A DNA stretch of 39,065 nt, taken from contig NZ_ADFP01000049.1 of assembly GCF_000177335.1 (NCBI RefSeq), positions 1 to 39,065 on the forward strand, given 5' to 3'. The stretch comes from Pyramidobacter piscolens W5455 (GTDB lineage: Bacteria; Synergistota; Synergistia; Synergistales; Dethiosulfovibrionaceae). A program made the translations under genes and the position numbers. The first letter of the stretch is position 1; every line of letters begins with the position of its first letter. The notes under the pieces are model-generated. The model made no database searches, was not told the origin of the DNA, and saw only the letters and a list, made by a program, of their open reading frames with translations. Positions 4,709-23,840 of this stretch are shown in pieces.

Positions 4709-5449
4709 CTAAAAGGTCTCTTCGGGAAGCAGATAGCGCCACTGTCCCGGCGGCAGCGCCCCCAGGCGCACTGAACCGACGCGCACGCGTTTGAGGGCCA
4801 GCACTTCGAGCCCGACGAGAGCGCACATGCGGCGGATCTGACGTTTTTTTCCCTGCTGCAGCACGAAGCGCAATTGATCGTCGTTCTGCCATCGCACCCG
4901 AGCGGGCAGAAGCTCTTCGCCGTCGAGGCTGAGGCCGTGATTGAGCAGCGCCAGGCCGCGTTCGCTCAAAGATCCGGCCACGCGCACGAGATACTCCTTT
5001 TCCACGGCACTGTCCTCGCCGACGAGGCGCCGCGCCACGCGCCCGTCTTGGGTGAGCACGAGCAGCCCGGTGGAGTTGACGTCGAGCCGACCGGCCGGGA
5101 CAAGGTTCTGCAGCTGGCGGAGGTCGAAACGCAGCGGCGATTTGTCGCCGCTCCAACAGTTTTCCGGGCGGATCAGCACGCGGGCGGGCCGGTAACCGTC
5201 TTCGGCTTGGCCGGAAACGTATCCCAGCGGTTTGTGCAGGAGGATCGTGACGCGGCGGCTCTGATCCCGTTCGGCGACGCGGTTCATTTCGATGCGATCG
5301 CGTTCCGTTACTTTCTGCCCGAGCACGGCGGGAACGCCGTTGACGCTGACGAGCCCGCGCGAAATGTATTCGTCGGCTTCACGCCGGGAACAAAGACCAA
5401 GCTCTGCCATGCGCTTCGAGAGGCGCATCTCCCCGCGCAAGTTATTCAC
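4709..5449 (-). CDS. RsuA/RluB/RluF-family rRNA pseudouridine synthase
   Basis: A 246-residue protein with an N-terminal S4 RNA-binding domain (about residues 8-60) and a pseudouridine synthase domain. The catalytic aspartate is D123 in the family motif GRLDVNSTGLL, and the C-terminal GKKRQIRRM segment is also typical. It isomerises a specific uridine in rRNA; which site (16S U516-type or 23S U2605/U2604-type) is not resolved. The start is the GTG at 5449, because AGAGGTG lies 8 bases upstream; the later ATG at 5428 has its purine-rich stretch too close. A DnaA-box match overlaps this start codon. It is the last gene of the dnaA-side minus-strand block. Confidence 0.88.
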   Translation of the reverse strand: MNNLRGEMRLSKRMAELGLCSRREADEYISRGLVSVNGVPAVLGQKVTERDRIEMNRVAERDQSRRVTILLHKPLGYVSGQAEDGYRPARVLIRPENCWSGDKSPLRFDLRQLQNLVPAGRLDVNSTGLLVLTQDGRVARRLVGEDSAVEKEYLVRVAGSLSERGLALLNHGLSLDGEELLPARVRWQNDDQLRFVLQQGKKRQIRRMCALVGLEVLALKRVRVGSVRLGALPPGQWRYLLPEETF

Positions 5450-5476
5450 AAATTATGCACCTCTCTTTGTGGATAC
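5442..5476. promoter_or_regulatory. pair of convergent DnaA-box-like sites
   Basis: TTATTCACA (5442-5450) matches the TTATNCACA consensus perfectly. Opposing TGTGGATAC (5468-5476) has one mismatch. They flank the ribosome-binding site and GTG start of the pseudouridine synthase gene, in the 81-bp gap after dciA. Confidence 0.5.
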
Positions 5477-5530
5477 ATGAACGCCTTTCCCGAGCGAACC
5501 GCCCGCAATCAAAAAACGACCGATCGTTTT

Positions 5531-6013
5531 TCACTCCTCCCTGCGCCCTTCACCCCATCGCGTCCGCGCCGCCGCCTCGAGGCGAGCCAACGACAACGCC
5601 GTATCGGGATCCTTGACGGTCGCTTTCACTCGGTTTAAGGCCTCGTCGACCATTTCCGGCGAGACCTGAAGACGTCGCGACGGAGGAGGCGGCGCTTCAC
5701 GCTGGCGTTCGAGGCGCGACACGACGGCGCGGACGCCGGGCAGCTCCAAACCTGTCAGCTTTTTCACGCGACGCAGCAGCGTGCCGGCGCTCAATTTGAT
5801 CATCTGCGCCGCGGCCGGCGACTCGCAGGCGACGATCAGTTCGCCGCGTTCGAGGCGGCTCGGACGGGTCAAAGCGGAGAGCTGCGGGCCGACAATCGTG
5901 AGCCATTGGCGTTCCATGTCGGCCAGCTTAAAAGCGATCTGAAAAGCCGACGGCAGATTATGGACGATCACGGAACCGACTGCCCTTGGGGCAGATATCT
6001 GATCCTTCGCCAT
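5531..6013 (-). CDS. dciA: DciA-type DUF721 protein (replicative helicase operator)
   Basis: A 160-residue DUF721-family protein. The N-terminal ~95 residues carry the family core (RQWLTIVGPQLSALTRPSRL, then LIVACESPAAAQMIKL and LLRRVKKLTG). The tail is a charged, proline- and arginine-rich extension. DciA proteins load or operate the DnaB replicative helicase in bacteria lacking DnaC/DnaI, and this gene is typically found beside recF/dnaN, as here. Start ATG is preceded by GAAAGGGG about 10 bases upstream. It is separated from mnmG by 131 bases containing a parS site. The helicase role is inferred from family and context. Confidence 0.82.
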   Translation of the reverse strand: MAKDQISAPRAVGSVIVHNLPSAFQIAFKLADMERQWLTIVGPQLSALTRPSRLERGELIVACESPAAAQMIKLSAGTLLRRVKKLTGLELPGVRAVVSRLERQREAPPPPSRRLQVSPEMVDEALNRVKATVKDPDTALSLARLEAAARTRWGEGRREE

Positions 6014-10955: not shown

Positions 10956-11203
10956 CTGTGGAGAATCCTCTCTTTCCTTTGACTTATTCTTCGGTTTGAG
11001 ATTTATAAAAACCGTAAAAGACGTAGTAGGTCACGTGAATGTTGTGGATAAACGAGAAACTCATTAGAAAAATCTGACGTGGCGCTGTGGAATTTTTTTC
11101 GGATAAGCTGTGGAAATTTATCCAAAATATACACATTTTTTTGTGATTTTGGAGAATCGAAGCGGTTATCCACCGTTGAACCTCCAGAAAATCCTCTGCT
11201 CAA
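10956..11203. other. DnaA-box cluster between dnaA and dnaN (candidate oriC part 1)
   Basis: A non-coding AT-rich gap. It holds one perfect DnaA box (TGTGGATAA, 11043-11051), a near box TTATCCACC (11166-11174), and several looser ones: TGTGGAGAA (10957-10965), TGTGGAATT (near 11086), TGTGGAAAT (near 11110) and TTATCCAAA (near 11119). An AT-rich segment around 11115-11150 could unwind. Together with the cluster upstream of dnaA this resembles the bipartite origin of Bacillus-like chromosomes. Origin activity is inferred. Confidence 0.6.
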
Positions 11204-12520
11204 TCACAGCTTTTTATCGATGTTTTCCACAATCTTTTTCACACGGGCGTCTTCCTTCATGAGCATCTCGATTTTTTTCAGCGCGTGCAGCACCGTAGTA
11301 TGATCCTTTTTGCCGAAATCCTTGGCGATTTGCTGTAAGCTGGATTCAGTGTGGATACGGCACATGTACATGGCTACTTGACGGGCCAGCGCCACTTCCG
11401 CCGTGCGGCGCTTACTGCAAATATCCTCTGGAGAGAAGCCGAACTCACTGGAGACCACGTCCATGATGCTCTGGAAAGTGAGGAGCCCGCGGCGGCCGCT
11501 GCCGATTACGTCTTTGAGCCACTCCTGCGTGTTTTCGATGGTGATCGGCTCCTGCGAGAAGTTGGCGCTGGCGATGACGCGGTTCAAAGCGCCCTCCAGC
11601 TCGCGGATGTTGCTGGGAATGTTTTCGGCAAGAAAGCCGATGACGTCGTCGTTGACGGGAATGCGGCGTTGCTCGGCTTTTTTCTTGAGGATGGCGATGC
11701 GGGTCTCGTAATCGGGCTGTTGGATGTCGGTCACTAAACCCCATTCAAAGCGGCTGATAATGCGGTCCTCGATGTCGCCAAGCTCCTTGGGCGGTCGGTC
11801 GGAACTGAGCACGATCTGCTTGTGCTCGGTATGAAGGTCGTTGAAAGTATGAAAGAACTCGTCCTGTGTGCTTTCCTTGCCGGCCAGAAACTGGATGTCG
11901 TCGATCAAAAGGATGTCCACGTGACGGTATTTGGCGCGAAACTCCGCGGTGCGGGCGTTTTTGATCGCCGTGATCAGCTCGTTGGTGAACTTCTCGGAGG
12001 AGAGGTAAGTGACTTTCGTGTTCCCGTTTTTTCCCTGCGCGTAATTGCCGATGGCGTGCATTAGGTGAGTCTTGCCCAGCCCGACGCCGCCCCAGATGAA
12101 CAGAGGATTGTACGCCTCTCCGGGACTTTCGGCGACAGCCAGACTGGCGGCGTGAGCGAGACGGTTCGATTTGCCGACGACGAACGAGGTGAAATCGTAC
12201 TGCCGGTTGAGCCCGTTCGAGCCGATCGGAGAATGCGGCTGGGGAGACGGAAGCGCCTCTTCCGCTCCGACTGGCTTGCTGTCGTAGACCAGGTCGATGC
12301 CGCTGCCTTTCCCTTTGCGCTGCATCACGCTTTCCAACGTCGCCAGAAAGCTGTCCTTGACTTTTTTGGCGACAAAGGAATTGCCGGCGTCCAGCACCAG
12401 CCGGTCGTCTTCCATACGGAGGGGAGAGCATGATTTAAGCCAGATGTCGACAGTCTGGTTTGGCAGGAGCGGGGCGGCTCCTTCCAGAATTTGCTCCCAG
12501 ATTTCTTCTGCGTTTTTCAT
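11204..12520 (-). CDS. dnaA: chromosomal replication initiator protein DnaA
   Basis: A 438-residue AAA+ initiator. Domain I is residues 1-80. A short linker (80-105) is rich in Pro/Ser. The AAA+ domain carries Walker A GGVGLGKT (144-151), Walker B DILLIDDIQF (202-211) and the initiator-specific segment. The C-terminal domain IV has the box-binding signature DHTTVLHALKKIE. It binds 9-bp DnaA boxes, melts the origin and recruits helicase. Start ATG has AGGAGC 8 bases upstream. The likely promoter overlaps a DnaA box, suggesting autoregulation. It is the first gene of the leftward block. Confidence 0.99.
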   Translation of the reverse strand: MKNAEEIWEQILEGAAPLLPNQTVDIWLKSCSPLRMEDDRLVLDAGNSFVAKKVKDSFLATLESVMQRKGKGSGIDLVYDSKPVGAEEALPSPQPHSPIGSNGLNRQYDFTSFVVGKSNRLAHAASLAVAESPGEAYNPLFIWGGVGLGKTHLMHAIGNYAQGKNGNTKVTYLSSEKFTNELITAIKNARTAEFRAKYRHVDILLIDDIQFLAGKESTQDEFFHTFNDLHTEHKQIVLSSDRPPKELGDIEDRIISRFEWGLVTDIQQPDYETRIAILKKKAEQRRIPVNDDVIGFLAENIPSNIRELEGALNRVIASANFSQEPITIENTQEWLKDVIGSGRRGLLTFQSIMDVVSSEFGFSPEDICSKRRTAEVALARQVAMYMCRIHTESSLQQIAKDFGKKDHTTVLHALKKIEMLMKEDARVKKIVENIDKKL

Positions 12521-12818
12521 CGTCGAAAGCTCCTACTTTTGTGTTTTACTGTTCCTGAGCTCAAAAATAATCCAGTCTTATTATCCACAATTGGACGAGA
12601 GTTGCAAGAGTTGTCCACTATAACTCGATAAGCGAGATTTTTTTGTGGAGAGAAAAAGGAAAAATCTGGTGTATAATCAGGATGATCTCGTTAAAACTTT
12701 TTATTATGATAAGTAAAACTTTTCGATCTGGTTCGAAGAATCGGAAGGACTCCGACGTTCCAGTCGTTTTATTTTCGCTCTCGTTTCGTCGATCATTCGC
12801 TGGAGGAGGCAGTTGATC
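12521..12818. other. dnaA upstream region with DnaA boxes (candidate oriC part 2)
   Basis: A gene-free divergent gap of 298 bases. It contains a perfect DnaA box TTATCCACA (12581-12589), a near match TTGTCCACT (12611-12619) and TGTGGAGAG around 12645. AT-rich sequence lies at 12625-12720. It also carries the dnaA promoter leftward and a TATAAT (12672-12677) that could serve the rightward aminotransferase gene, although its -35 is poor. Confidence 0.55.
12578..12607 (-). promoter_or_regulatory. probable dnaA promoter overlapping a DnaA box
   Basis: On the minus strand TTGCAA (12602-12607), 18-base spacer, TAATAA (12578-12583). The -10 shares bases with the perfect DnaA box at 12581-12589, so bound DnaA would occlude polymerase. 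Confidence 0.5.
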
Positions 12819-14012
12819 ATGTCGATCTATTTCAACAACGCGGCCACCACGTGGCCGAAACCGGACTGTGTCGCCCGCGCCATGAGCGATTTTCTCGGTT
12901 CCGGAGGCGCCAACCTGGGGCGGGGAACCGCTTCGGCCCGAGACCTCGGCACCATGGGATTGGTGCTGGAGTGCCGCGAGCGCGCGGCGCGCCTGCTGGG
13001 CGGCTACGAGAACGCTTCGCCCGTGTACGTGACTTTTACGGCTAATATCACCGAGTCGCTCAACGTCGTGCTGAAAGGATTTCTCAAGTCCGGCATGCGC
13101 GCCGTCACCACGTCCATGGAACACAACGCCGTGACGCGCCCGCTGCGCCGCCTGGAAAAGGACGGCGTCGATCTGGAGATCCTGCCCTGCGACCGGCGGG
13201 GTTATCTTGATCCCGAAAAACTGGCGGCTGCGCTTGACGCGAAAAAAGCCGACCTGGTTGTGATCAGCCATTGTAGCAACGTGTGCGGTTCCGTACAAAA
13301 TCTCGAAGCCATCGCCGCCGCCTGCCGCAAGCGGGGAGTGCGCCTTGTCGTCGACACGGCGCAGACGGCCGGACTGATACCGCTGAACGCCGCGGCGCTC
13401 GGCCTGGCGGCGCTGTGCTTTACAGGGCACAAAGGGCTCATGGGGCCGCAGGGGATGGGCGGCATCGTCTGGCAGCCTGAATTCGCCCGTCTTTGCGAGC
13501 CCTTGGTCGATGGAGGCACTGGCAGCTTCTCGCATGTGGAAACGCAGCCGGAAGCCATGCCCGACCGTTTCGAGAGCGGCACGGGGAATCTGCCCGGCAT
13601 CGCCGGTTTGAACGCGGCCCTGAAATGGATCGAAGAACGCGGCGTCGACGTCATCCGCGCCCACGAAAACGAACTGGGCGCCCGCTTTTTGGCGGGGTTG
13701 AAAAAATTTGACGGTCTGATCCTGTACGGACTGCCGGAAATGATCGACAAAAAACGGTTATCCGTCTTCGCCGTCAACTTCGAAGGCGTGGACAACGGCG
13801 TTCTCGCCGCCGAGCTCAGCAGCCGCGGTCTGGAAACGCGTCCCGGTCTGCAGTGCAGCCCGTGGGGGCACCAGACGTTGGGCTGCTTTCCGCAAGGCGC
13901 GCTGCGCCTCAGCCTCGGCTATTTCAACACCCCCGCTCAGGTTGACGAAGCGTTGCGAATCTTGGCTGATTCGCTGGCGGTCGTGCGCGCCCCAAAACTG
14001 CCGGCAAACTGA
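12819..14012 (+). CDS. cysteine desulfurase-like class V aminotransferase
   Basis: A 397-residue PLP enzyme of the NifS/CsdA type, closest to the stand-alone family often labelled cysteine desulfurase family protein. The N-terminus YFNNAATTWPKP is typical. PLP contacts are in SHCSNVCG and DTAQTAG, and the Schiff-base lysine lies in TGHKGLMGPQG. A conserved cysteine near the end, RPGLQCSPWGH, fits the persulfide-carrying residue. It would release sulfur from cysteine or a related amino acid. The ATG at 12819 is chosen over TTG at 12813 because GGAGGAGG lies at proper spacing. It is followed by a clear terminator; no Fe-S scaffold gene is adjacent, so the role is uncertain. Confidence 0.85.
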   Translation: MSIYFNNAATTWPKPDCVARAMSDFLGSGGANLGRGTASARDLGTMGLVLECRERAARLLGGYENASPVYVTFTANITESLNVVLKGFLKSGMRAVTTSMEHNAVTRPLRRLEKDGVDLEILPCDRRGYLDPEKLAAALDAKKADLVVISHCSNVCGSVQNLEAIAAACRKRGVRLVVDTAQTAGLIPLNAAALGLAALCFTGHKGLMGPQGMGGIVWQPEFARLCEPLVDGGTGSFSHVETQPEAMPDRFESGTGNLPGIAGLNAALKWIEERGVDVIRAHENELGARFLAGLKKFDGLILYGLPEMIDKKRLSVFAVNFEGVDNGVLAAELSSRGLETRPGLQCSPWGHQTLGCFPQGALRLSLGYFNTPAQVDEALRILADSLAVVRAPKLPAN

Positions 14013-14020
14013 TCGCTCCG

Positions 14021-14052
14021 ATCCCCGCAAACGTTGTCTGCGGGGATTTTTT
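14021..14052 (+). terminator. terminator of the aminotransferase gene
   Basis: ATCCCCGCA pairs with TGCGGGGAT, followed by a T run, 9 bases past the stop codon. Confidence 0.9.
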
Positions 14053-14061
14053 CATAAGAAA

Positions 14062-14077
14062 TGTTCCACGTGGAACA
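14062..14077. promoter_or_regulatory. parS site 2
   Basis: Perfect TGTTCCACGTGGAACA, between the aminotransferase terminator and the nitroreductase promoter. Confidence 0.93.
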
Positions 14078-14182
14078 TTGACAACAGACGTTCGTCGATG
14101 TCGAGTCGGCTTCTGTCAGGTCTTTCTGACGGAAAATTTAAGCGTTGTATACTCCATTTTTGCTGAATTCCTCTTATCCCCG

Positions 14183-14191
14183 TGCTATAAT
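14183..14191 (+). promoter_or_regulatory. extended -10 promoter of the nitroreductase gene
   Basis: TGCTATAAT is a perfect extended -10 (TG-N-TATAAT) 52 bases before the ATG. The -35 region is poor, as is usual for extended -10 promoters. Confidence 0.6.
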
Positions 14192-14243
14192 ACGCTCACG
14201 TATAAAATAATACGTAATTGCTATGGTATTGGAGGTTGACATC

Positions 14244-14759
14244 ATGAACGAGACTTTGATGAACATCATGGCTCGCCGCAGCATCCGCCGCTACACTGAA
14301 GAACCGGTCTGCGAATCCACAATGAAGCTTGTCTTGGCGGCCGCCTGCGCAGCTCCCAGCGCCAAGGGGGAACGCCCGGTGCGTTTTGTCGTGTTGGATA
14401 AAAAGCGGATGGGCTCTCTGGCCGAAAAAGTTCAGCAGAAAGATCCCTTCCGCGAAGGGCAGTGGGCCATTGCCGTCCTTGCCGATCTGCGCGGCTACGA
14501 CAGCGGCCTGGCTTGGATCGAAGACGGAGCCGCCGCTATGGAGAACATGCAGATCGCCTGCAAGTCGCTGGGTCTCGGCTCGCTGTGGTACGGCGTCTAC
14601 CGCCGTGCCGCCAAGGAAGCGGCGGTCCGCGAGTTTTTGCAGCTGCCCGACGGCGTAGAGGTTCTCGGGATCACCGTGATGGGCTATGCCGCCGAGCGTA
14701 AAGAGGCTTACAGCGGCGTGGACGAAAGCAAAGTGCGTTACGGCATCTGGAGCGAATAG
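14244..14759 (+). CDS. nitroreductase family protein
   Basis: A 171-residue FMN-dependent nitroreductase-fold protein. The N-terminal RRSIRRYTEEPV is the FMN phosphate-binding arginine motif, followed by AAPSAKGERPVRFVV, and the later region AMENMQIACKSLGLGSLWYGVY is also family-typical. Such enzymes reduce nitro groups, quinones or flavins with NAD(P)H; the real substrate is unknown. The ATG at 14244 is preceded by GGAGG 8 bases upstream, which excludes the earlier in-frame ATG at 14223. It is a single-gene transcript ending at a strong hairpin shared with the converging kinase gene. Confidence 0.9.
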   Translation: MNETLMNIMARRSIRRYTEEPVCESTMKLVLAAACAAPSAKGERPVRFVVLDKKRMGSLAEKVQQKDPFREGQWAIAVLADLRGYDSGLAWIEDGAAAMENMQIACKSLGLGSLWYGVYRRAAKEAAVREFLQLPDGVEVLGITVMGYAAERKEAYSGVDESKVRYGIWSE

Positions 14760-14827
14760 ACGGCGATGGCGAATCTTTGCCTCAGCAGCGGAGTTTTTTG
14801 GAAACATTTTTTCTGATCTTTGGTGGT

Positions 14828-14878
14828 AAAAACAAGGGATGTGACGAGTGAATTGCGCTCGCTGCATCCCTTGTTTTT
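14828..14878. terminator. bidirectional terminator between nitroreductase and histidine kinase genes
   Basis: AAAAACAAGGGATG (14828-14841) pairs with CATCCCTTGTTTTT (14865-14878); an inner CGAGTG/CGCTCG stem extends it. T runs appear on both strands, as expected between converging genes. Confidence 0.85.
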
Positions 14879-14880
14879 GT

Positions 14881-16107
14881 TCAGCGCTTATTTTTTATGG
14901 TGATTACGATAGTCGTCCCGCAGCCGAGGCTGCTTTTGACGGCGATCGTGCAGCGCGCGCCGAAAAACATCCTCAGCCTTTTAAAGCAGTTGCTCATGCC
15001 GATATGGATTTTGCCGCCGCGCGGGAGTCTTTTCGAGGCTAGTTCTTCCAGGATGGCGCCAAGCGTATTTTCGTCCATGCCCGCTCCACTGTCGCGGATT
15101 TCGATCGTGTACGCCGACATGCCGGCGCGGCAAGCGATATTCAGCTCGCCTCCATATTTGCGAGTCGGGTTCAGGATCCCGTGTTCGAGCGCATTTTCAA
15201 CAAAAGGCTGAAGACTGAAGAATGGGATCGTCAAAGGCTCTGATTTTTTATCGCAATCAATATGATAGACCAGATTTTCACCGAAACGATATCTCTGGAT
15301 CCGCAGGTAATGGCGTATGTAGTCGAGTTCCTGTTTGAGCGTCACTTTGGCCGCCGGCCGGGACAGAGTGTAACGGAGCATCGACGAAAATGACTCCAGC
15401 ATTTCTTGGGCCTGATCGTTCTTTTTCATGCTCATGAGTCTGGAAATCGAGTTAAGGACGTTAAAAGTGAAGTGCGGCATGATCTGCTTCTGCAAAGCCT
15501 CGAAGCGGGCCAGGGTCAGTTGGTTTTTGAGGTTGATCAGTTTTTTTTGGTTTTTTAGCAGCTCGTCCGTTAGATGTCCGACGTGCTCCTGGATCTGCGT
15601 GTAGGACTTTTGTTGAAGGATGTAGTTGGAAAAATTTTGCAGAGCGCGCGCCGTTTCCTGGATCTGCTTCAGGCTGAGGACGGGAATTTCACGATAATAC
15701 GATGTATACAGCTCATTTTCACGCCACAGTTGTTGGGGCGCCTGTTCGTCTTGAGGAAAAGGATGGTTCCCTTCGCAAATGACCTGCCCGGCGGTGATCG
15801 CGCCGATCAGTTCGCCGTCCAGCGTCAGCGGGATCTCGATGTTGACCAGGCCGGCATGGCAGATATAGATGCCGGGGCGCCCATCTTTCAGTGCGATCTG
15901 GATGGCATTCTTGTTCGAACACTGGCAGCGCGCGCCGTCTTTCGGATCGGCGTTGATGGCACGGCAAAAACGGGAGAAGTTGCTTCCCTCGCCGAGGTGC
16001 CGCCCTTCCTTGTCTACGAAAACGACGCCGAAGCCCGTCGCATAGGCGAAAGACTCCTGCAGTTCCCGCTGCAGTTTTTCCGGGATAAGATCAGCAAGTT
16101 CACTCAC
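14881..16107 (-). CDS. cytoplasmic sensor histidine kinase with PocR domain (LytS/YesM-type kinase core)
   Basis: A 408-residue soluble kinase with no membrane segment. Residues 5-115 form a PocR-type sensory domain with cysteines C48, C61, C63, C83 and C111 and the motif YICHAGLVNIEIPL. A coiled-coil-like linker (145-205) leads to the His_kinase core QIMPHFTFNVLNSIS (phospho-acceptor H212), and an HATPase domain with N box FVENALEHGI (N305) and G box DSGAGM (339-344). PocR domains sense small cytosolic ligands; the cysteines suggest a metal or redox element. The start is GTG, 8 bases inside the end of the regulator gene, with AAAGGA upstream, so the two are translationally coupled. The ligand is unknown. 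Confidence 0.88.
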   Translation of the reverse strand: MSELADLIPEKLQRELQESFAYATGFGVVFVDKEGRHLGEGSNFSRFCRAINADPKDGARCQCSNKNAIQIALKDGRPGIYICHAGLVNIEIPLTLDGELIGAITAGQVICEGNHPFPQDEQAPQQLWRENELYTSYYREIPVLSLKQIQETARALQNFSNYILQQKSYTQIQEHVGHLTDELLKNQKKLINLKNQLTLARFEALQKQIMPHFTFNVLNSISRLMSMKKNDQAQEMLESFSSMLRYTLSRPAAKVTLKQELDYIRHYLRIQRYRFGENLVYHIDCDKKSEPLTIPFFSLQPFVENALEHGILNPTRKYGGELNIACRAGMSAYTIEIRDSGAGMDENTLGAILEELASKRLPRGGKIHIGMSNCFKRLRMFFGARCTIAVKSSLGCGTTIVITIKNKR

Positions 16108-17164
16108 GGTATTTTTCCTTTCTGTACCGGGCGGGCGTCAGACCATATTTCTTTTTGAAATTCCGAAAGAATGTCGATACGTTTTGAAATCCTGCGCGTT
16201 CTGAAATTTCCTGCGTCGTCATCCTGCTCTGCAGCAAAAGCCGTTCGGCTTCGGCGAGACGTTTTTCATTGACGTACTGCTGGATCGAAACGCGCTGAGT
16301 CCTGCGAAACAGCCTCTCGACGTAGTCTTCGCTCAAAAAGACGAGTCCTTTCAAATCGCCGGCGCCGACGTCTTCCCGGAAATGTTCGTCCAGGAACTCC
16401 ACAATGCGCCGTATCGGCGCGGCTGAATCGCGAAAAGAACTTCTGACGGCGGAAAGGATATTGTCAAGGCAGGAATTGGCGAGATCGGCGATCTCCGGCA
16501 TGGTGGGCGTCTGCGAAATGCGCGTCAGGATCCGGTCGCACAGGCGTTCATCAGCGGCGCTCATGGAAACTGAGCCAAGACGGCACGCTTTCATGACGTC
16601 GAACAAAACGTTGAGGACGTGCAGCCGATAAACGTTTAAACTCAGGTTCTTTCCAAGCGAAGCGCGGATCTCGCTCAGCACGCTCTCGCACAGCGCGCCG
16701 TCCTTTGTTTCCAAAGCTCGGGCGAAGTTTTCGGCGGCTTCCGTCGGAAAAGCGTCCAGAAGAGAGCGGAACGTCTCCTGACCGTCGCGTTCAAGAGACC
16801 GCGGCGTAAAACGGGAACGCAGCAGGGAAAATATCTCGCTTTCCGACGAGGGCTTCAGCAGATAGGCGTCGACGCCGCAGTCGATGCCTTGCTGCGCGTA
16901 CTTGAATTCGGCAAACGCCGAATTCAGCACGATAAACGTTTGAGGCAAAGCTTTTTTGATCTTTCCCGCCGCGGCCAGGCCGTCCAGCAGCGGCATGCGG
17001 ATATCGAGAAACGCGACGTCGGGACGATGCAGAAAGGCCAATTCGACGGCGGTCTGCCCATCCCCGGCCTCCGCGACGACGTGAAAATCTTCGAGGCGGT
17101 TCAATAAATTTACGAGAAATTCCCGCTCGATCATCTCATCTTCAGCAATCAGTACGGTATGCAT
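16100..17164 (-). CDS. response regulator with AraC-type DNA-binding domain (YesN-like)
   Basis: A 354-residue regulator. The receiver domain (1-120) has acidic residues E8-D9, phospho-acceptor D54 in AFLDIRMPLLDG and the conserved lysine K104. A middle region (125-245) is of unknown fold. Two helix-turn-helix motifs of the AraC/XylS class fill about 250-350, ending in the family motif FQNVSTFFRNFKKKYGLTPARYR. It is cotranscribed with and upstream of its kinase. It is divergent from the isochorismatase-permease operon, which is its most likely target. Its own ribosome-binding site (AGAAGAG) is weak. Confidence 0.93.
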   Translation of the reverse strand: MHTVLIAEDEMIEREFLVNLLNRLEDFHVVAEAGDGQTAVELAFLHRPDVAFLDIRMPLLDGLAAAGKIKKALPQTFIVLNSAFAEFKYAQQGIDCGVDAYLLKPSSESEIFSLLRSRFTPRSLERDGQETFRSLLDAFPTEAAENFARALETKDGALCESVLSEIRASLGKNLSLNVYRLHVLNVLFDVMKACRLGSVSMSAADERLCDRILTRISQTPTMPEIADLANSCLDNILSAVRSSFRDSAAPIRRIVEFLDEHFREDVGAGDLKGLVFLSEDYVERLFRRTQRVSIQQYVNEKRLAEAERLLLQSRMTTQEISERAGFQNVSTFFRNFKKKYGLTPARYRKEKYRE

Positions 17165-17257
17165 CTCTTCTTGCCTTTCTGTCGCAAATCTGTGGATTTT
17201 TATTGCAAAATAGTGAGCATATAACTTTTTTTGACGATGAAAAGTCGCTTTTATGAA

Positions 17258-17286
17258 TTGTCAGAAACGTGATATTTGCTGATAAT
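17258..17286 (+). promoter_or_regulatory. promoter of the isochorismatase-permease operon
   Basis: TTGTCA (17258-17263), 17-base spacer, GATAAT (17281-17286), 41 bases before the ATG. The gap with the divergent regulator gene is 163 bases, enough for an AraC-type operator, but no clear direct repeat was identified. Confidence 0.6.
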
Positions 17287-17327
17287 GATGCTATCTTAAC
17301 ATACTTTATACTATTGGAGGGATTCTC

Positions 17328-18017
17328 ATGAAGGTGAACGATCGGTACTGTTCGTTCTACTATGAGCTGGACGACGACTATTGCGACATCGAGGTCGACA
17401 GGGACAGGACGGCGCTGCTCATTGTCGATATGCAGCATCATTTCCTCACTCGTCCGAAGTTGGGCGATAACGCGTCCGAGCGTGAAAAAGCCTACTATGC
17501 CAAATGGGGCTACTTTTACGACCGGGTCGAAAGAGAAGTCGTCCCGAACAATCAAAAACTGTTGGCCGCTTTCAGGGAGAGAAACATGTTTGTTTCCCAC
17601 GCGCGCATCACCGGTCAGCTCGAGAGCGGGCGCGAGCGTTCTCTTGATCAGAAAGCGACCGGGTACAACGAACTGCTTCTGCTTCCCGGCATGCCTTCCG
17701 CTGAAATCGTCGAGCCTCTGAAGCCTGCCAGAAACGAGCTGGTCGTCATGAAGACGACCGACAGCGCCCTGACGGGGACTTCTCTGCGCCTGATGCTTCA
17801 TAACTGCGGCATCGATACGGTGGTCGTCACCGGCGTTTTGACGGATCAGTGCGTTTCCGGAACGGTGCGCAGCCTCGCCGACGAGAGCTTCAAGGTCTGG
17901 CTGATTGAAGACGCCTGCGCCGCGTCGACCAAGGAGATCCAGGAACACGAGCTTTCCGTGCTGAACAACATTTACTGCCACGTCGTCAATACCGAAGAGC
18001 TTATCGGCGCTCTTTAA
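17328..18017 (+). CDS. isochorismatase-family cysteine hydrolase
   Basis: A 229-residue alpha/beta hydrolase of the isochorismatase/nicotinamidase superfamily. The catalytic triad is visible: D34 in LLIVDMQHHF, K142 in VVMKTTDSAL and C175 in TDQCVSGTVR. The family includes nicotinamidases, N-carbamoyl-sarcosine and biuret amidohydrolases and true isochorismatases. The N-terminal 25 residues are an extra extension, and residues 45-70 form a longer insert than in small nicotinamidases, so I leave the substrate open. GGAGG precedes the ATG. It is 28 bases ahead of an APC permease gene, which suggests import and hydrolysis of one amide-type compound under control of the divergent two-component system. 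Confidence 0.88.
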   Translation: MKVNDRYCSFYYELDDDYCDIEVDRDRTALLIVDMQHHFLTRPKLGDNASEREKAYYAKWGYFYDRVEREVVPNNQKLLAAFRERNMFVSHARITGQLESGRERSLDQKATGYNELLLLPGMPSAEIVEPLKPARNELVVMKTTDSALTGTSLRLMLHNCGIDTVVVTGVLTDQCVSGTVRSLADESFKVWLIEDACAASTKEIQEHELSVLNNIYCHVVNTEELIGAL

Positions 18018-18045
18018 TTTCTGTTGAAGCGGGAGGAAGAAAAAA

Positions 18046-19407
18046 ATGAAAGACAACAGGCTGAAGAGAGATTTAAGTTTTATCCAAGTCATCGCGATTT
18101 CCTCTGGAGCCGTGATCGGCGGCTGGCTAGCGGAAGCGCCGTATTGGTTCCAGACGACGGGGGCTGGCGCGGCGTTCCTGTTCCCGCTGCTGGCGCTGCT
18201 GCTCGTTCCCGTGGGGCTGGCGTTCGGTGAGCTGTCGGCGATGCTGCCTTTTGCGGCCAGCACCGACGTGTGGACGTGCAACGCTTACAATAACAAAGCG
18301 GGTTTCGCCACACAGTGGATGATGTTTCTGATCCAGGTTGTCGAGCCGCCGATGATGGCGTTTATTTTCGGCACGGCGATCAACCACTTCTATCCGCTGA
18401 CGAACGAGCAGATGATGATTATCGCCATGCTGTCCGTCACACTGTGGTTCGTGCTTTCCAACTTCAATATCAGCCTGACCGGACGGCTTTCCAACATCTT
18501 TTTCTTTGCGATGATCCTCATCTCGCTCTGCGTCTCGACGTCGTTTTTCCTGAGCGGACACTGGAGCTTCGACAATATCCGCCTGCACCAGGGATTCTTC
18601 CCTAAAGGAGGATATGGGATTTTCATCGCCATGGCTGTGTTCTCGTTGAAATTCATCGGTTTCGAGATGACGCCGACGCTGGTCGAGGAGGCCAACTTCT
18701 CTGCTTCCAAGTTGTGGAAGGTCATTTTGTCCGCCCTTTTCATTCCCGCGCTGCTGTACAGCTTTGTCGTCCTCGCCATGGGCGGCATGGCGCCCTGGAA
18801 GGAAATCGCGGCCATGAGCATGCCTGAGCCGGAATTGATCGCCCGTTTCGGACTACCCAGCATCCTTGCCGTTCTCGCCATTGTGTCCGGGCTGATGCAC
18901 GCCTTTACGACGCTGATGGGGTTTTGGACTTCCAGCGCGCGCGTGCTGTACGGCGCTTCCCAGCTGAATCAGCTGCCGAAGGTGTTCATGAAGGTGAACC
19001 GCTACGGGCAGCCGTTTTGGGCTAACGTCGTCGTGTATCTGTTTTCACTGTTCTTCTGCTACTTCAGCGGCGACAACTGGGTGCAGTACATCTACGCGAT
19101 CTCCAGCATCGCCGCGGGCATCGTCTACTTTATTTCCTGCCTTGACGTCGTGCGTCTCAGGAAGCTGCACCCCGAATGGAAGCGTCCGTTCAGGGCCCCG
19201 GGGGGGAACTTCGTCTTCGGCGTCGGTATGCTCATTTCCATCTGGCTGATCATCGGCGCGTGTATGGAGCTGGACCGCGGCGGATACGTTTCATTGGGGC
19301 TTTTCTTCGCTCTTGGAGCGGTAGTCTACGCTTTCGCCGCGACGCATCGGCGCGTCTGTGGCTATCAGATGCGCGTCCTTACGCCGGACGATGTCGGTAA
19401 AGAATAA
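18046..19407 (+). CDS. APC-family amino acid permease
   Basis: A 453-residue inner-membrane transporter with about 12 hydrophobic helices. The first helix carries the APC substrate-binding glycine motif SSGAVIGGWL, and helix 6 region FIGFEMTPTLVEEA resembles the F-x-G-x-E segment of APC carriers. It would import an amino acid or amine. Ribosome-binding site GGGAGGAA precedes the ATG. It is second in an operon with the isochorismatase-family hydrolase, and is followed by a terminator. Confidence 0.9.
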   Translation: MKDNRLKRDLSFIQVIAISSGAVIGGWLAEAPYWFQTTGAGAAFLFPLLALLLVPVGLAFGELSAMLPFAASTDVWTCNAYNNKAGFATQWMMFLIQVVEPPMMAFIFGTAINHFYPLTNEQMMIIAMLSVTLWFVLSNFNISLTGRLSNIFFFAMILISLCVSTSFFLSGHWSFDNIRLHQGFFPKGGYGIFIAMAVFSLKFIGFEMTPTLVEEANFSASKLWKVILSALFIPALLYSFVVLAMGGMAPWKEIAAMSMPEPELIARFGLPSILAVLAIVSGLMHAFTTLMGFWTSSARVLYGASQLNQLPKVFMKVNRYGQPFWANVVVYLFSLFFCYFSGDNWVQYIYAISSIAAGIVYFISCLDVVRLRKLHPEWKRPFRAPGGNFVFGVGMLISIWLIIGACMELDRGGYVSLGLFFALGAVVYAFAATHRRVCGYQMRVLTPDDVGKE

Positions 19408-19455
19408 AACGACTCTCGTCTTTTGGCTATAATTATCAGAGAAGATTTTTCGTTG

Positions 19456-19487
19456 TCCGGGCTTTCGCGTGGAAGCCCGGATTTTTT
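19456..19487 (+). terminator. terminator of the isochorismatase-permease operon
   Basis: TCCGGGCTT pairs with AAGCCCGGA, followed by T6, 49 bases past the permease stop. Confidence 0.88.
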
Positions 19488-19505
19488 ATGTTTGTTGTTC
19501 TCGAG

Positions 19506-19558
19506 ACAAACGATTGGGCAGGATAGACGGCGACCGCTTATCCTGCCCAATCGTTTGT
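19506..19558 (-). terminator. long perfect hairpin, probable terminator of the HIT-yigZ transcript
   Basis: A 20-bp uninterrupted stem (19506-19525 with 19539-19558) with a 13-base loop lies 15 bases past the minus-strand stop. The 3' arm ends TTTGT on the minus strand but has no long T run, so its role could also be RNA stabilisation. Confidence 0.6.
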
Positions 19559-19573
19559 TTCTGTCAAATTTTT

Positions 19574-20245
19574 TCATGATCCGTCGGCTTGTTTTTCTGC
19601 TGCAAGCACGTAGTCTTTTCCCCAGCGCGGCGGGGCGGCGAGCAGAGTACGTCCTTCGTAGCTGTCGAGCAGAACGCGCAGCCGTTCTTCGATCTCGGGG
19701 GAGACGAGCAGGTTGAGCGTGACATCCGCGGCATAGGTCGTGCGCAGGCGGTTCTCGGCGACGCCGGCGTTTTTGACGACGCGGCTGAGGGAGGCCAGAT
19801 GTTCGTAACTGCAGCACAGTTCCAGATCTTTGAAAGGCAGAGCGGTTTCGAGCGCGGCGCGTTCGATGACTCCGGCCGCGGCGGCGCCGTAGGCGTCGAT
19901 GAGGCCGCGCACGCCGAGCTTGACGCCGCCGAAATAACGCGTCACGACGAGAACGGCGTTGAACAGCCCGGCTTTTTGCAAAACGCCGAGGATCGGCCGT
20001 CCCGCGGTCCCGCCCGGCTCGCCGTCGTCGGAGCAGAATTCTTCCACGTCGGGGTAGCCGACGCGCCAGGCCGGGCAATTGTGCGCGGCGCCGTAATGCT
20101 CCTTGCGTACGGATTCCAGCGCGGCGCGAGCCTCGTCGCCCGCCGCGGCGGGAAAGAGGGCGGCGATGAACTCGCTGCGTTTCTCCTTGAAGCTGTAAAC
20201 GGCGGGGGCCGCGGGGCGGCGGCAGGGCTGGTTTAGCGCCAGCAC
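19574..20245 (-). CDS. YigZ/IMPACT family protein (UPF0029)
   Basis: A 223-residue protein of the YigZ/IMPACT family. The N-terminal domain has the signature SDDGEPGGTAGRPIL followed by VVTRYFGGVKLGVRGL, and a smaller C-terminal ferredoxin-like domain follows. Its molecular role in bacteria is unsettled (translation-related or hydrolytic). The GTG start lies 13 bases inside the end of the HIT gene, so the pair is probably translationally coupled. No good Shine-Dalgarno is seen before it. Confidence 0.88.
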   Translation of the reverse strand: MLALNQPCRRPAAPAVYSFKEKRSEFIAALFPAAAGDEARAALESVRKEHYGAAHNCPAWRVGYPDVEEFCSDDGEPGGTAGRPILGVLQKAGLFNAVLVVTRYFGGVKLGVRGLIDAYGAAAAGVIERAALETALPFKDLELCCSYEHLASLSRVVKNAGVAENRLRTTYAADVTLNLLVSPEIEERLRVLLDSYEGRTLLAAPPRWGKDYVLAAEKQADGS

Positions 20246-20718
20246 GAGCGGCAGCGTTCCCAGGTCTCTTCAAGGGAGATGGGGACGACCTTGACGTCGC
20301 CGATTGCGCCCATGAAGTTGCTGTCGCCGTTCCAGCGCGGCACGACGTGGCAGTGGATATGGGTGTCGATGCCGGCGCCGGCCGCCGCGCCGATGTTGAT
20401 GCCGACGTTGAAGCCGTCGGGATGGAACGCGCCTTTGAGGCACTCGACGGCGCGGGCGATCAGGTCGTGGAACTCCAGAGACTCCTCGGAGGTAAATGAT
20501 TTCAGGTCGGTGGTGTGGCGGTAGGGGATGACCATCAGATGACCCGAGCTGTAGGGATAGGCGTTGAGAATCACGAAGCAGTGTTTGCCGCGAAAGACGA
20601 TGAAGTGTTTTCTGTCGTCGCTGCCGTCGGCGGGAAAGTCGCAGAAGATACAGCTCTTGCCGTCGCTTTTGGTGGAGTTGAGGTACGTATACCTCCATGG
20701 GGCCATGAGTGTTTCCAT
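20233..20718 (-). CDS. HIT family nucleotide hydrolase/transferase
   Basis: A 161-residue histidine-triad protein. The triad is H120-I-H122-C-H124 followed by VVPRW. An N-terminal CIFC (C23, C26) is like the zinc knuckle of the Ap4A-phosphorylase-like HIT branch, and YPYSSGHLMVIPYRH is the conserved strand. These enzymes cleave dinucleoside polyphosphates or nucleotide phosphoramidates. ATG is preceded by AGAGGAAAG. It lies beside the DnaA-box-rich gap and overlaps the YigZ gene. Confidence 0.92.
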   Translation of the reverse strand: METLMAPWRYTYLNSTKSDGKSCIFCDFPADGSDDRKHFIVFRGKHCFVILNAYPYSSGHLMVIPYRHTTDLKSFTSEESLEFHDLIARAVECLKGAFHPDGFNVGINIGAAAGAGIDTHIHCHVVPRWNGDSNFMGAIGDVKVVPISLEETWERCRSCWR

Positions 20719-21197
20719 GTTCTTTCCTCTTTTCTATGAGCAAAAAGATGGGAGTTATTCACCGCTGTGGATAACATTGGTGGATAACTTGTGAGTGGGA
20801 TGTGCACTCGTAAAATTTTACAGCCGGAACTGCGCGAGAAAAGATTTTTAAAAGCTCTTTTCGAGGGGATCTGAAGAAAAACGGGGCGGTTCTGTGGAAA
20901 CTGTGAATCAAAGCGTCGCGGGAAAATTTGAATGGTCAGAAAACTTTTCCCATGTGAACTTTTCGGCATCGCGATTTATATTGAAAACGAATTTTTTATG
21001 TTCGTTCTTCGTGACGGGCTTTTCAAAAGTCTTCGGCGTTAGGCGTTTTGAAATACTATCCTCTTCAAAAGATTTTTTGAAAGAGCTCCTTTGTTCCTGG
21101 AAAATTTTGTCAAGTGCCGGAAAGTATGCTTTTGCGATGGTGGAGAAGTGGACAAAATGTGGATAACTTGGGACGTTCAATGCTTCATGCCGCGGCT
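20719..21197. other. 479-bp gene-free AT-rich region with DnaA-box cluster (alternative oriC)
   Basis: No credible coding sequence. Three DnaA-type boxes fall within 33 bases: TTATTCACC (20755-20763), TGTGGATAA (20766-20774, perfect) and GGTGGATAA (20779-20787). A further perfect TGTGGATAA lies at 21158-21166. Between them the sequence is clearly more AT-rich than the genes, with T- and A-runs and a repeat of TTTTGAAA at 21021-21082. It lies immediately downstream of the parAB operon. Function as origin or DnaA-titrating site is inferred. Confidence 0.55.
21021..21082. repeat. TTTTGAAA/TTTCAAAA iterated inverted 8-mer
   Basis: Four copies in alternating orientation: TTTCAAAA (21021-21028), TTTTGAAA (21046-21053), CTTCAAAA (21063-21070, one mismatch) and TTTTGAAA (21075-21082). 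They fall in the DnaA-box-rich gap. Confidence 0.5.
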
Positions 21198-21437
21198 TCA
21201 CCGGTTCTGGCGGTCGCGGCGGATCATCGCGAGAATGCTTTTCAACTCGTGAACTCCCGAGAGCAGCGCGCCGATCAGGCCGGCAATCAGGCACAGGGGG
21301 AGCGTCCATTGCGGGTAACCGCGGTCCAGAAAATAGCGGCCGATGAACAGTCCCGCCAACAGGTAGCCGCAGACGAGCAGAGCCGCTCCGACGATTCGGC
21401 TGAAGACGATGACGTCTCTGACGTGGGGAATTTTCAT
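21198..21437 (-). CDS. small two-helix membrane protein, AtpZ/AtpI-like
   Basis: A 79-residue protein with two hydrophobic helices (about 14-34 and 44-64). The pattern G-x-x-x-G-x-x-x-L-D-R between helices (AGLFIGRYFLDRG) followed by a glycine-spaced second helix resembles AtpZ/AtpI, the small assembly or Mg2+/Ca2+ transport factor of F-type ATPases. Its ATG touches the parB stop codon (TAAATG), so it is translationally coupled to parB. No ATP synthase gene is visible in the window, so the assignment rests on pattern and is moderate. Confidence 0.6.
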   Translation of the reverse strand: MKIPHVRDVIVFSRIVGAALLVCGYLLAGLFIGRYFLDRGYPQWTLPLCLIAGLIGALLSGVHELKSILAMIRRDRQNR

Positions 21438-22397
21438 TTATTTGCTGTCCGGCTCTCCGCCCATAAAATCGGCTTCGCGGTCCAGCAGGGCGAAAAGACG
21501 TTCCACTTGCCCACGGCGCATGCCGTTGATGACGACGCGGTTTTCTCTCTCGTTGCCGAAGACGCTGAAAGACAGGCCGAGCCGGCGCGCCACTCTCAGC
21601 GCTCCTTTGGGGCGCCAGGGATCAAGCTGAGGGGCCTTGTAAAGGACGGTGACGCGGCGGCTGTTGAGGGAGTCGATGCGTTTTTGCAGGTTGTGAACGG
21701 ACCAGTGGTGCGTAACGCAATCCTCTACAAGCTCTTCAAGAAATTTCTGCGGTTCCTTCAGAGACAGCAGGGCTTTGGCGTGCCCTTCGCTGAGGTTGCC
21801 GGCGGCGATCTGGTCCAGAGCGCATTGAGGCAGCGAGAGGATGCGGAGCTTGTTGGCCACGACGCTGCGGCTCCAACCGATGCGCTCGGCCAGTTGGTTC
21901 TGGGTGAGCTGGTGTTTTTCCATCAGGGCTTTGAGAGCGTTGGCGGCCTCGAGCACGGTCAGATCTTCGCGCTGAAGATTCTCTACGAGGGCGATCTCGC
22001 TGAGGAGCTGCTCGTCGCCACGGACGATGCGCACGGGCACTTCCGCGAGTCCGGCCAGCTCGCAGGCGTGAAAACGGCGTTCGCCGGCAACGATGCGGTA
22101 TTTCTTCGCGCTTTTTGCAGGCGCGGGGGTGACGATCAGCGGCTGAAGCAGCCCATGAACTTTGATGGACGCCGCCAGTTCGTGCAGCGTTGCGCTGTCG
22201 AAGAGCTTGCGGGGCTGATGGGGATTGGGCTCGATATCGGCCAGCGGGGCCATTTCGCTGTTCTGGGGGACGCGGCTCACGTTTTGCTTGGCCAGCAGCG
22301 CGCCGAGGCCGCGCCCAGACTGGATGATGGACTTTGCGGAAGCGGCGGATTTCTTCGCGGTCTGAGCCGCGGCGGTATTTTTGCGATTTACAGCCAT
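21438..22397 (-). CDS. parB: chromosome partitioning protein ParB (CTPase, parS-binding)
   Basis: A 319-residue ParB. The N-terminal tail has the ParA-contact motif GRGLGALL (28-35). The CTP-binding domain has NPHQPR (58-63), GERRFHA (105-111) and ENLQRED (139-145). A helix-turn-helix for parS binding spans 164-187, and a C-terminal dimerisation domain ends the protein. ATG at 22397 is preceded by GGAGG and overlaps the parA end by 10 bases. It would spread from the seven parS sites in this window and load SMC. Confidence 0.96.
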   Translation of the reverse strand: MAVNRKNTAAAQTAKKSAASAKSIIQSGRGLGALLAKQNVSRVPQNSEMAPLADIEPNPHQPRKLFDSATLHELAASIKVHGLLQPLIVTPAPAKSAKKYRIVAGERRFHACELAGLAEVPVRIVRGDEQLLSEIALVENLQREDLTVLEAANALKALMEKHQLTQNQLAERIGWSRSVVANKLRILSLPQCALDQIAAGNLSEGHAKALLSLKEPQKFLEELVEDCVTHHWSVHNLQKRIDSLNSRRVTVLYKAPQLDPWRPKGALRVARRLGLSFSVFGNERENRVVINGMRRGQVERLFALLDREADFMGGEPDSK

Positions 22398-23149
22398 AGT
22401 CTTTTGACCTCCAATGCCAGATCGTGATAGGCTTGGCCGCCGCGGCTGGAACGGACGTAGTCGCGGATGGCCAGTCCCTGCGCGGGGGCTGCCGCCAGGT
22501 CGATGTTGCGGGGAATCACGGTCTTCAGCACGTGTTCGCCGAAGACGTCGCGGATTTGCGTTTCGATCTCGCGCGTCAAGCGCAGATTGGGGTTGTACAT
22601 GGTGAGCAGAATCGCGTCGATCTGCGCGCCTTGGTTGATGCCTTGTTCGCGGACCATCTGCACGGTGCGCGCCAGCAGGCTGAGCCCCTGCATGGAGTAG
22701 TATTCGCACTGCACGGGCACCAGCAGGCGGTTGGCGGCGGCCAGCGCGTTGACGGTGAGCAGTCCAAGCGACGGGGGGCAGTCGACGAGGACGACGTCGA
22801 AGTCGTTTTCAAGCTTGCGTAGCGCTTCGCGCAGGCGGAACTCCCTTCCTTTAAGGCCGCCCATTTCCAGATCGGCGCCGACCAGATTGATGTTCGAGGC
22901 GATCAGCGAGACGTTTTTGGCGCTGGTCGAATGCAGCGCCCATTTAGGCTCTTCGTTGCCGACGACGAGGTCATAAAGCGACACGGAATCGTCGAACTGG
23001 AAGCCGAGGCCGCTGGACGCGTTGCCTTGAGGATCCGCGTCGACGACGAGCACCTTTTTGCGCATGGCGCCGAATTCGGAAGCCAGATTGACGCAGGTCG
23101 TCGTCTTGCCGACGCCGCCTTTCTGATTGATGACCGCGATGGTCTTCAT
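22388..23149 (-). CDS. parA: chromosome partitioning ATPase ParA (Soj)
   Basis: A 253-residue deviant Walker A ATPase. The P-loop KGGVGKTT spans residues 10-17, including the signature lysine K10. VDADPQGNASSGLG and VLVDCPPSLGLLTVNAL are the Walker A' and B regions. It lacks the N-terminal DNA-binding extension of plasmid-type ParA, so it is the chromosomal Soj type. The ATG at 23149 is chosen because GGAGGTGA precedes it and the protein then begins MKTIAVINQKGG. It follows rsmG by 4 bases and overlaps parB. Confidence 0.97.
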   Translation of the reverse strand: MKTIAVINQKGGVGKTTTCVNLASEFGAMRKKVLVVDADPQGNASSGLGFQFDDSVSLYDLVVGNEEPKWALHSTSAKNVSLIASNINLVGADLEMGGLKGREFRLREALRKLENDFDVVLVDCPPSLGLLTVNALAAANRLLVPVQCEYYSMQGLSLLARTVQMVREQGINQGAQIDAILLTMYNPNLRLTREIETQIRDVFGEHVLKTVIPRNIDLAAAPAQGLAIRDYVRSSRGGQAYHDLALEVKRLWL

Positions 23150-23153
23150 CGTC

Positions 23154-23840
23154 TCACCTCCACCACAGTTTTTTTTCGGCCCGCCCGGGCTTGCGCGGAT
23201 AGACCGCGGGACAGGGAGCGCTTTTCTTCCAGAGCAGCATATAACTTTTATGATCTTTGAGATCGTACTCGTACAGATTGGGCTCTGCCAGTCCCAGAGT
23301 GTGCCAGAGGCCTTCAAGCGGCGCCAGCTCTTCGCCGACGGAACTGCCCTTCATGGCGATCAGCGCGCCGCCTTCGCGCACCAACGGCGCCAGATATTCG
23401 GCGATGACGCCGGCTTCGCTGACAGCCCGCACCACGGCGGCGTCGTACCGTTCACGGCGCGCGGCGGCGAAATCCTCCGAGCGCATGCAGATCACTTCCG
23501 CGTTGGGGAGCTTCAGCGCAGCGATAATTTCTGCAAGGGCCTTGGTCTTGCGCGAAAGGCTGTCCAGCAGGGTGAATTTCAGATCGGGGCGGCACACGGC
23601 CAAAACGGCGCCGGGCAGACCGCCGCCGGTACCAACGTCCACGACTGTGCCTGAAGGCGGCAACAGCGGCAGCACGTGCAGGCAGTCTTCGATATGATCC
23701 GTCCACAACGTTTCCTCGTCGTACGGCCCTGTCAGCCGCACGCGCTCGTTGGCGACAGCCAGCAGCGAAGCGTAGCGGCGCAGCTGCGTCACCGTTTTCG
23801 CGGATGGTTCGGGGAGCGGCGGCAACGGTTGAATCTCCAT
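23154..23840 (-). CDS. rsmG: 16S rRNA (guanine-527-N7) methyltransferase RsmG (GidB)
   Basis: A 228-residue SAM-dependent methyltransferase for G527 of 16S rRNA. The SAM motif VVDVGTGGGLPG is at about residues 66-77. SLSRKTKALAEII and the FAAARRERYDAAVVRAVS stretch are family hallmarks. The ATG at 23840 is chosen over 23855 because GGAGGTG lies just upstream of the former only. The rsmG-parA-parB order is a conserved origin-proximal operon. mnmG, its usual neighbour, is here about 15 kb away on the other side of dnaA. Confidence 0.95.
   Translation of the reverse strand: MEIQPLPPLPEPSAKTVTQLRRYASLLAVANERVRLTGPYDEETLWTDHIEDCLHVLPLLPPSGTVVDVGTGGGLPGAVLAVCRPDLKFTLLDSLSRKTKALAEIIAALKLPNAEVICMRSEDFAAARRERYDAAVVRAVSEAGVIAEYLAPLVREGGALIAMKGSSVGEELAPLEGLWHTLGLAEPNLYEYDLKDHKSYMLLWKKSAPCPAVYPRKPGRAEKKLWWR

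What the first reader, a model, noticed from the sequence alone, without database searches (positions are those of the whole stretch)
20719..21197. Second, unexpected origin-like region beside parAB
A 479-bp AT-rich gene-free stretch holds two perfect DnaA boxes and at least two one-mismatch boxes. Three of them lie in 33 bases, and two of those share orientation with starts 13 bases apart. It sits directly after parA-parB-atpZ-like and about 8 kb from dnaA. The textbook origin would be the dnaA flanks, so this could be the real origin, an origin sub-element or a DnaA-titration site. The sequence shows the boxes; the role is inference.
Basis: partly seen in the sequence, partly recalled or inferred. 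Interest (0 to 1): 0.65.

Follow-up and report, generated by a model that had tools for sequence, protein, structure and literature searches.

The report
Displaced half of a replication origin
In the mouth and gut bacterium Pyramidobacter, the cluster of initiator-protein binding sites that its relatives keep right in front of the dnaA gene appears to sit several kilobases away, beside the chromosome-segregation genes, so its replication origin looks unusually widely split.

Summary
Window 20719-21197 (Pyramidobacter, Synergistota) has two perfect DnaA boxes and five near-matches, beyond chance (0 of 1000 shuffles). A triad (→2←4←, 20755-20787) and an overlapping triplet (←-1←2←, 21139-21166) are conserved in all five Pyramidobacter genomes that hold the locus, 390-392 bp apart, although the DNA between has diverged in the most distant one. 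A single-copy 21-bp element beside the triplet is conserved too. None of 25 other parB neighbourhoods in the order has such a cluster. It is probably not where replication opens: the dnaA-dnaN gap (10956-11203) carries a DnaA box plus DnaA-trio (the B. subtilis-type unwinding module), conserved in the family; the finding region has none. GC skew cannot separate sites 10 kb apart. The best clue is geometric: across Synergistales the same triad and/or overlapping pair/triplet lies directly upstream of dnaA. In Pyramidobacter that spot has only scattered boxes, and the module sits between HIT and atpZ, 3.7-8.2 kb from dnaA. I read it as the upstream half of a bipartite oriC, re-housed beside parAB. 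A DnaA-titration or DARS-like regulatory cluster is the main rival; E. coli DARS spacing is not matched.

The parts
20755..20763 (+). Triad box I, TTATTCACC
   Evidence: conserved in G001, G004, G005, as TTGTTCACC in G003
20766..20774 (-). Triad box II, TTATCCACA (perfect), 2 bp from box I, convergent
20779..20787 (-). Triad box III, TTATCCACC, 4 bp from box II
20893..20910 (-). Weak abutting box pair (GTTTCCACA, TGATTCACA), conserved in the close species, not in G003
21108..21128 (+). 21-bp single-copy conserved element TGTCAAGTGCCGGAAAGTATG, role unknown
21139..21155 (-). Two weaker boxes overlapping by 1 bp (TTCTCCACC 21139, TTGTCCACT 21147), part of the triplet
21158..21166 (-). Triplet perfect box TTATCCACA
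20233..20718 (-). HIT-family protein gene whose start codon bounds the region
21198..21437 (-). AtpZ-like 79-aa membrane-protein ORF (name by resemblance; only read)
21438..23317 (-). parB and parA
11204..12520 (-). dnaA
10956..11203 (-). dnaA-dnaN gap: proposed opening half of the origin, box 11043-11051 then trio CTACTA at 11024-11029
12521..12812 (.). dnaA-upstream gap; scattered boxes only, without the triad and triplet that relatives have here

Best explanation
The region is a DnaA-assembly platform equivalent to the upstream half of a bipartite chromosomal origin. In Pyramidobacter it has been moved, or re-evolved, from its usual place directly upstream of dnaA into the HIT-atpZ gap beside parAB. 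Shown: the boxes, their conservation, the matching geometry upstream of dnaA in relatives, its absence upstream of dnaA here, and a box-plus-trio opening module in the dnaA-dnaN gap. Inferred: DnaA binds the triad (convergent pair plus follower) and the head-to-tail triplet; the complex contacts, by looping over about 5-10 kb, DnaA bound in the dnaA-dnaN gap, where the strands open at the DnaA-trio; it thereby sets local DnaA supply and initiation timing.
For: (1) Box groups conserved but the DNA between them not, in five Pyramidobacter genomes; spacing between the strong boxes 390-392 bp in all. (2) The triad pattern occurs exactly once per Pyramidobacter genome, here (5/5). In other genomes every match with a 2-bp convergent gap is upstream of dnaA (G006, G008, G010, G012, G018), as is one with a 5-bp gap (G017); the matches with a wider gap in G009 and G012 are on the dnaN side of dnaA (G013 has the same sequence type). 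(3) The triplet pattern finds this locus in 5/5 Pyramidobacter and dnaA-upstream sites in G006, G008, G009, G010, G012, G051, G059; the only exceptions are two genomes of family f5. (4) Triad and triplet keep the order and relative orientation seen in the sister genus; random placement of 8 boxes gave triad plus overlapping doublet in 15 of 400,000 trials. (5) Pyramidobacter's dnaA-upstream gap lacks both. (6) The dnaA-dnaN gap has a box-trio unwinding module across the family.
Against: No similarity to relatives' dnaA-upstream arrays beyond the boxes themselves, so true relocation is not shown and convergence is possible. Interaction of oriC halves over 5-10 kb is not documented in the papers read. 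Genus g3 (G007) also lacks the upstream array, so an upstream half may not be essential in this family. The pattern was defined after seeing it, so the simulation overstates significance. No binding or genetic data were found for any Synergistota origin.
Confidence: 0.55

Rival explanations
1. An oriC-proximal DnaA regulatory cluster (titration site like B. subtilis DnaA-box clusters, or a DARS/datA-like DnaA-recycling site) that tunes initiation without being part of the origin.
For: DnaA-box cluster outside the dnaA flanks and oriC-proximal, as in B. subtilis (PMC5295017). The triad has the same orientation pattern as the E. coli DARS core. Its distance from dnaA varies (3.7 to 8.2 kb), which a free-standing regulator would tolerate.
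Against: DARS spacing not matched (starts 11 and 13 apart here, 14 and 12 in both E. coli cores). The geometry is otherwise found at dnaA-adjacent origin halves, and it is missing at dnaA here.
Confidence: 0.28
2. DnaA-controlled promoter region of the HIT gene.
For: The triad lies 37-69 bp upstream of the HIT start codon; DnaA is a known transcription factor (PMC4447404).
Against: The triplet and the 21-bp element lie about 390-450 bp upstream; no sigma-70-type promoter was found towards HIT; HIT follows parB in other genera without any boxes.
Confidence: 0.1
3. The region is itself the main site of replication opening.
For: AT-rich, dense strong boxes, beside parAB.
Against: No DnaA-trio beside its boxes, while the dnaA-dnaN gap has a family-wide box-trio module. 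The lowest-energy 100-bp stretch near the dnaA flanks (10973-11072, 12618-12717) is weaker-paired than any in this region.
Confidence: 0.05

Closest known systems
Bipartite oriC (B. subtilis; H. pylori and other Epsilonproteobacteria oriC1/oriC2)
   Same: Two DnaA-box clusters; the unwinding module lies between dnaA and dnaN and the other cluster lacks it.
   Different: In the known cases the clusters flank dnaA directly. Here the strong second cluster is 3.7 kb (G001) to 8.2 kb (window) beyond dnaA, with several genes between.
dnaA-upstream DnaA-box array of other Synergistales (families f1-f4, f6, f8, f9 here)
   Same: Triad with a convergent 2-3 bp gap and/or an overlapping (-1) pair or triplet; same order where both are present.
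   Different: Placed upstream of HIT instead of dnaA; triad and triplet about 350 bp apart, not about 130-150; no sequence similarity outside boxes.
B. subtilis oriC-proximal DnaA-box clusters (DBCs)
   Same: DnaA-box cluster outside the origin core, near oriC.
   Different: The geometry here matches relatives' origin halves; effect on timing unknown.
E. coli DARS1/DARS2 core
   Same: Three boxes, the first opposed to the next two.
   Different: Starts 11 and 13 bp apart here versus 14 and 12 in both E. coli cores; oriC-proximal here, whereas both E. coli DARS lie far from oriC.

Membership tests
Bipartite oriC | Two separate DnaA-box clusters | tested here: met
Bipartite oriC | Clusters lie in the two gaps directly flanking dnaA | tested here: not met
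   The strong second cluster is in the HIT-atpZ gap, 3.7-8.2 kb from dnaA; the dnaA-upstream gap has only scattered boxes
Bipartite oriC | One half carries the unwinding module (DnaA box plus DnaA-trio) | tested here: met
   dnaA-dnaN gap
Bipartite oriC | DnaA bridges both halves; both needed in vivo | not testable with these tools
   Needs electron microscopy, ChIP and deletions
DARS (DnaA-reactivating sequence) | Box I opposed to boxes II and III | tested here: met
DARS (DnaA-reactivating sequence) | Core spacing shared by DARS1 and DARS2 (starts 14 and 12 bp apart) | tested here: not met
   11 and 13 here
DARS (DnaA-reactivating sequence) | Promotes ADP release from DnaA | not testable with these tools
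   Biochemical assay needed
DnaA-box cluster (DBC / titration site) | DnaA-box cluster outside the origin core | tested here: met
DnaA-box cluster (DBC / titration site) | Loss advances initiation | not testable with these tools
   Genetics needed
Origin opening site | DnaA-trio next to a DnaA box | tested here: not met
   None beside boxes in 20719-21197
Origin opening site | Strand-skew minimum at the site | tested here: inconclusive
   Weak, mosaic skew

The most novel reading that the evidence does not exclude
Pyramidobacter runs a widely split bipartite origin: the ancestral dnaA-upstream DnaA platform was physically transplanted next to parAB and still works with the opening site in the dnaA-dnaN gap across 5-10 kb, possibly coupling initiation to the segregation locus.
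Probability: 0.4. Interest if true: 0.72.

Novelty: new variant of a known kind. Interest (0 to 1): 0.6.

Why it matters
In the bipartite origins described in the papers read, the two halves flank dnaA directly. A natural case where one half sits several genes away, at variable distance but with invariant box geometry, would make three questions testable: must the halves be close, do they talk by looping, and what is the non-opening half for (a role called unexplained in PMC5043019). Its place next to parAB also offers a test of cross-talk between initiation and segregation.

Tried and rejected
GC skew: sampled whole-chromosome skew of the 2.78-Mb relative G005, fourfold-site skew controlled for gene strand, and k-mer skew give a weak mosaic signal, with a local minimum at dnaA and a deeper one near 300-400 kb, so they cannot choose between sites 10 kb apart. 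Conserved small protein or RNA in the middle of the region: no convincing coding similarity to G003, no Rfam match. parS in the region: none; parS-like sites lie elsewhere in the window. DARS membership: orientation fits, spacing does not. Flanking homology with relatives' dnaA-upstream arrays: only box-sized matches.

Full report
IDENTITY. The window's parA is 92% identical to that of Pyramidobacter sp. C12-8 (contig NZ_MUHX01000003.1, whose length equals contig C122 of G004), so the window is from Pyramidobacter (Synergistota). Gene order: rlu-type pseudouridine synthase, dciA, mnmG, an unknown, recF, dnaN, dnaA, a + strand gene, a PocR-type two-component pair, HIT, an AtpZ-like ORF, parB, parA.

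OBSERVATION. Box density is far above dinucleotide shuffles. The perfect box TTATCCACA occurs only 19 times in the 2.56-Mb genome, 4 of them in this window. Tight same-direction pairs of near-perfect boxes occur 2-3 times per Pyramidobacter genome and nearly all are in this one gap.

CONSERVATION. The gap aligns at 85-88% with G001, G004 and G005; in G003 (ParB 58% identical) BLAST finds only the triad stretch and the triplet-plus-element stretch. The box groups are therefore constrained and the middle is not. Spacing between the strong boxes is 392, 391, 390, 390 and 392 bp (positions). A 21-bp element next to the triplet occurs once per genome in the four genomes searched (own, G001, G003, G005) and is present in G004 too. 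None of 25 other parB loci of the order has a box cluster within 1.5 kb. The module lies 8.2 kb from dnaA in the window and in G004/G005 but 3.7 kb in G001, so it tolerates a change of distance.

WHERE REPLICATION OPENS. The dnaA-dnaN gap holds TTATCCACA followed shortly by CCTACTACG (G003: CCTATTATTACGG). The sister genus has ATATCCACATATACACAGCCCATACTACGACGACTACT in the same place, and other families have similar box-trio strings. This is the arrangement of the B. subtilis basal unwinding system (PMC6669920). None was found beside boxes in the finding region. Skew is weak and mosaic: a local minimum sits at dnaA in G005, but the method cannot resolve 10 kb, and a deeper minimum near 300-400 kb suggests rearrangement. 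The origin-biased spread of parS-like sites is coarse but its interval includes dnaA.

WHAT THE MODULE IS. Writing boxes as arrows with the gaps between them, the finding region reads > 2 < 4 < ... < 0 < ... < -1 < 2 <. The sister genus g2, directly upstream of dnaA, reads > 2 < 2 < ... < -1 < 4 <. Other families of the order show > 2-3 < 2-3 < and/or < -1 < upstream of dnaA (G014, G018, G020, G037, G051, G059, also G011 of g2). Pattern searches of 24 genomes find the triad and the triplet essentially only at such dnaA-adjacent sites, and in Pyramidobacter only in the HIT-atpZ gap. The exceptions are a triplet 3.6 kb from parB in two genomes of family f5. In Pyramidobacter the dnaA-upstream gap has just scattered boxes. 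A simulation of eight randomly placed boxes gave triad plus overlapping doublet in 15 of 400,000 trials; it ignores my freedom in choosing the pattern and is only a guide.

MECHANISM (inferred). In bipartite origins of B. subtilis and Epsilonproteobacteria the half without the unwinding element is bridged by DnaA to the other half; it is needed in vivo in B. subtilis and H. pylori although not for unwinding in vitro (PMC5043019; PMC6669920). I propose the same for this module, across 9.7 kb in the window (11043 to 20755) and about 5.1 kb in G001. Relative to the chromosome the module is inverted compared with the sister genus; two nested inversions could produce this, but that history is speculation.

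RIVALS. A titration or DnaA-recycling site is the main rival (PMC5295017; PMC5742627). E. coli DARS cores, measured here, have starts 14 and 12 bp apart in both copies, against 11 and 13 in the window, so the module is not filed as a DARS though it could work like one. Promoter control of HIT could explain the triad but not the distant triplet. The 'real origin' reading has little left to support it.

LIMITS. No binding, transcription or replication data are available; nothing on Synergistota origins was found in the literature searched. G004 and G005 are near-identical and count as one lineage. G002 could not be checked because its contig ends at parB.

Noticed in passing
6093, 14062, 23888, 24004, 33037, 34766, 36636 (16 bp each): Perfect palindrome TGTTCCACGTGGAACA (parS-like) seven times in the window; 57 exact copies in G005 and 57 matches within 2 mismatches of canonical parS in the own genome, spread over the chromosome with origin bias (Rayleigh p about 2e-5, gap at 1.10-1.49 Mb in G005). 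Two sister-genus genomes have 3-4. A review cites 20-23 as the high end (PMC7333895).
   Followed up: partly
5442-5535: Another small DnaA-box cluster at the start of the rlu-type pseudouridine-synthase gene, partly conserved in G005.
   Followed up: partly
21108-21128: Single-copy 21-bp element strictly conserved in the genus beside the triplet; no known motif recognised.
   Followed up: partly
L141:13784-13956: Genome G007 (genus g3) has no array upstream of dnaA or at parAB but a DnaA-box cluster 13.8 kb from its dnaA on the dnaN side, so the second cluster may have moved there too.
   Followed up: partly
L163:7830-7930: Family f5 genomes (G026, G017) carry a DnaA-box triplet 3.6 kb from parB, near the start of an aldehyde-dehydrogenase-like gene (name by resemblance), about 80 kb from dnaA in G026.
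   Followed up: partly
G005:C1 180-400 kb (loci L040, L071-L072, L121-L126): GC and k-mer skew keep falling beyond dnaA to about 300-400 kb, suggesting a recent inversion or an atypical skew pattern.
   Followed up: no
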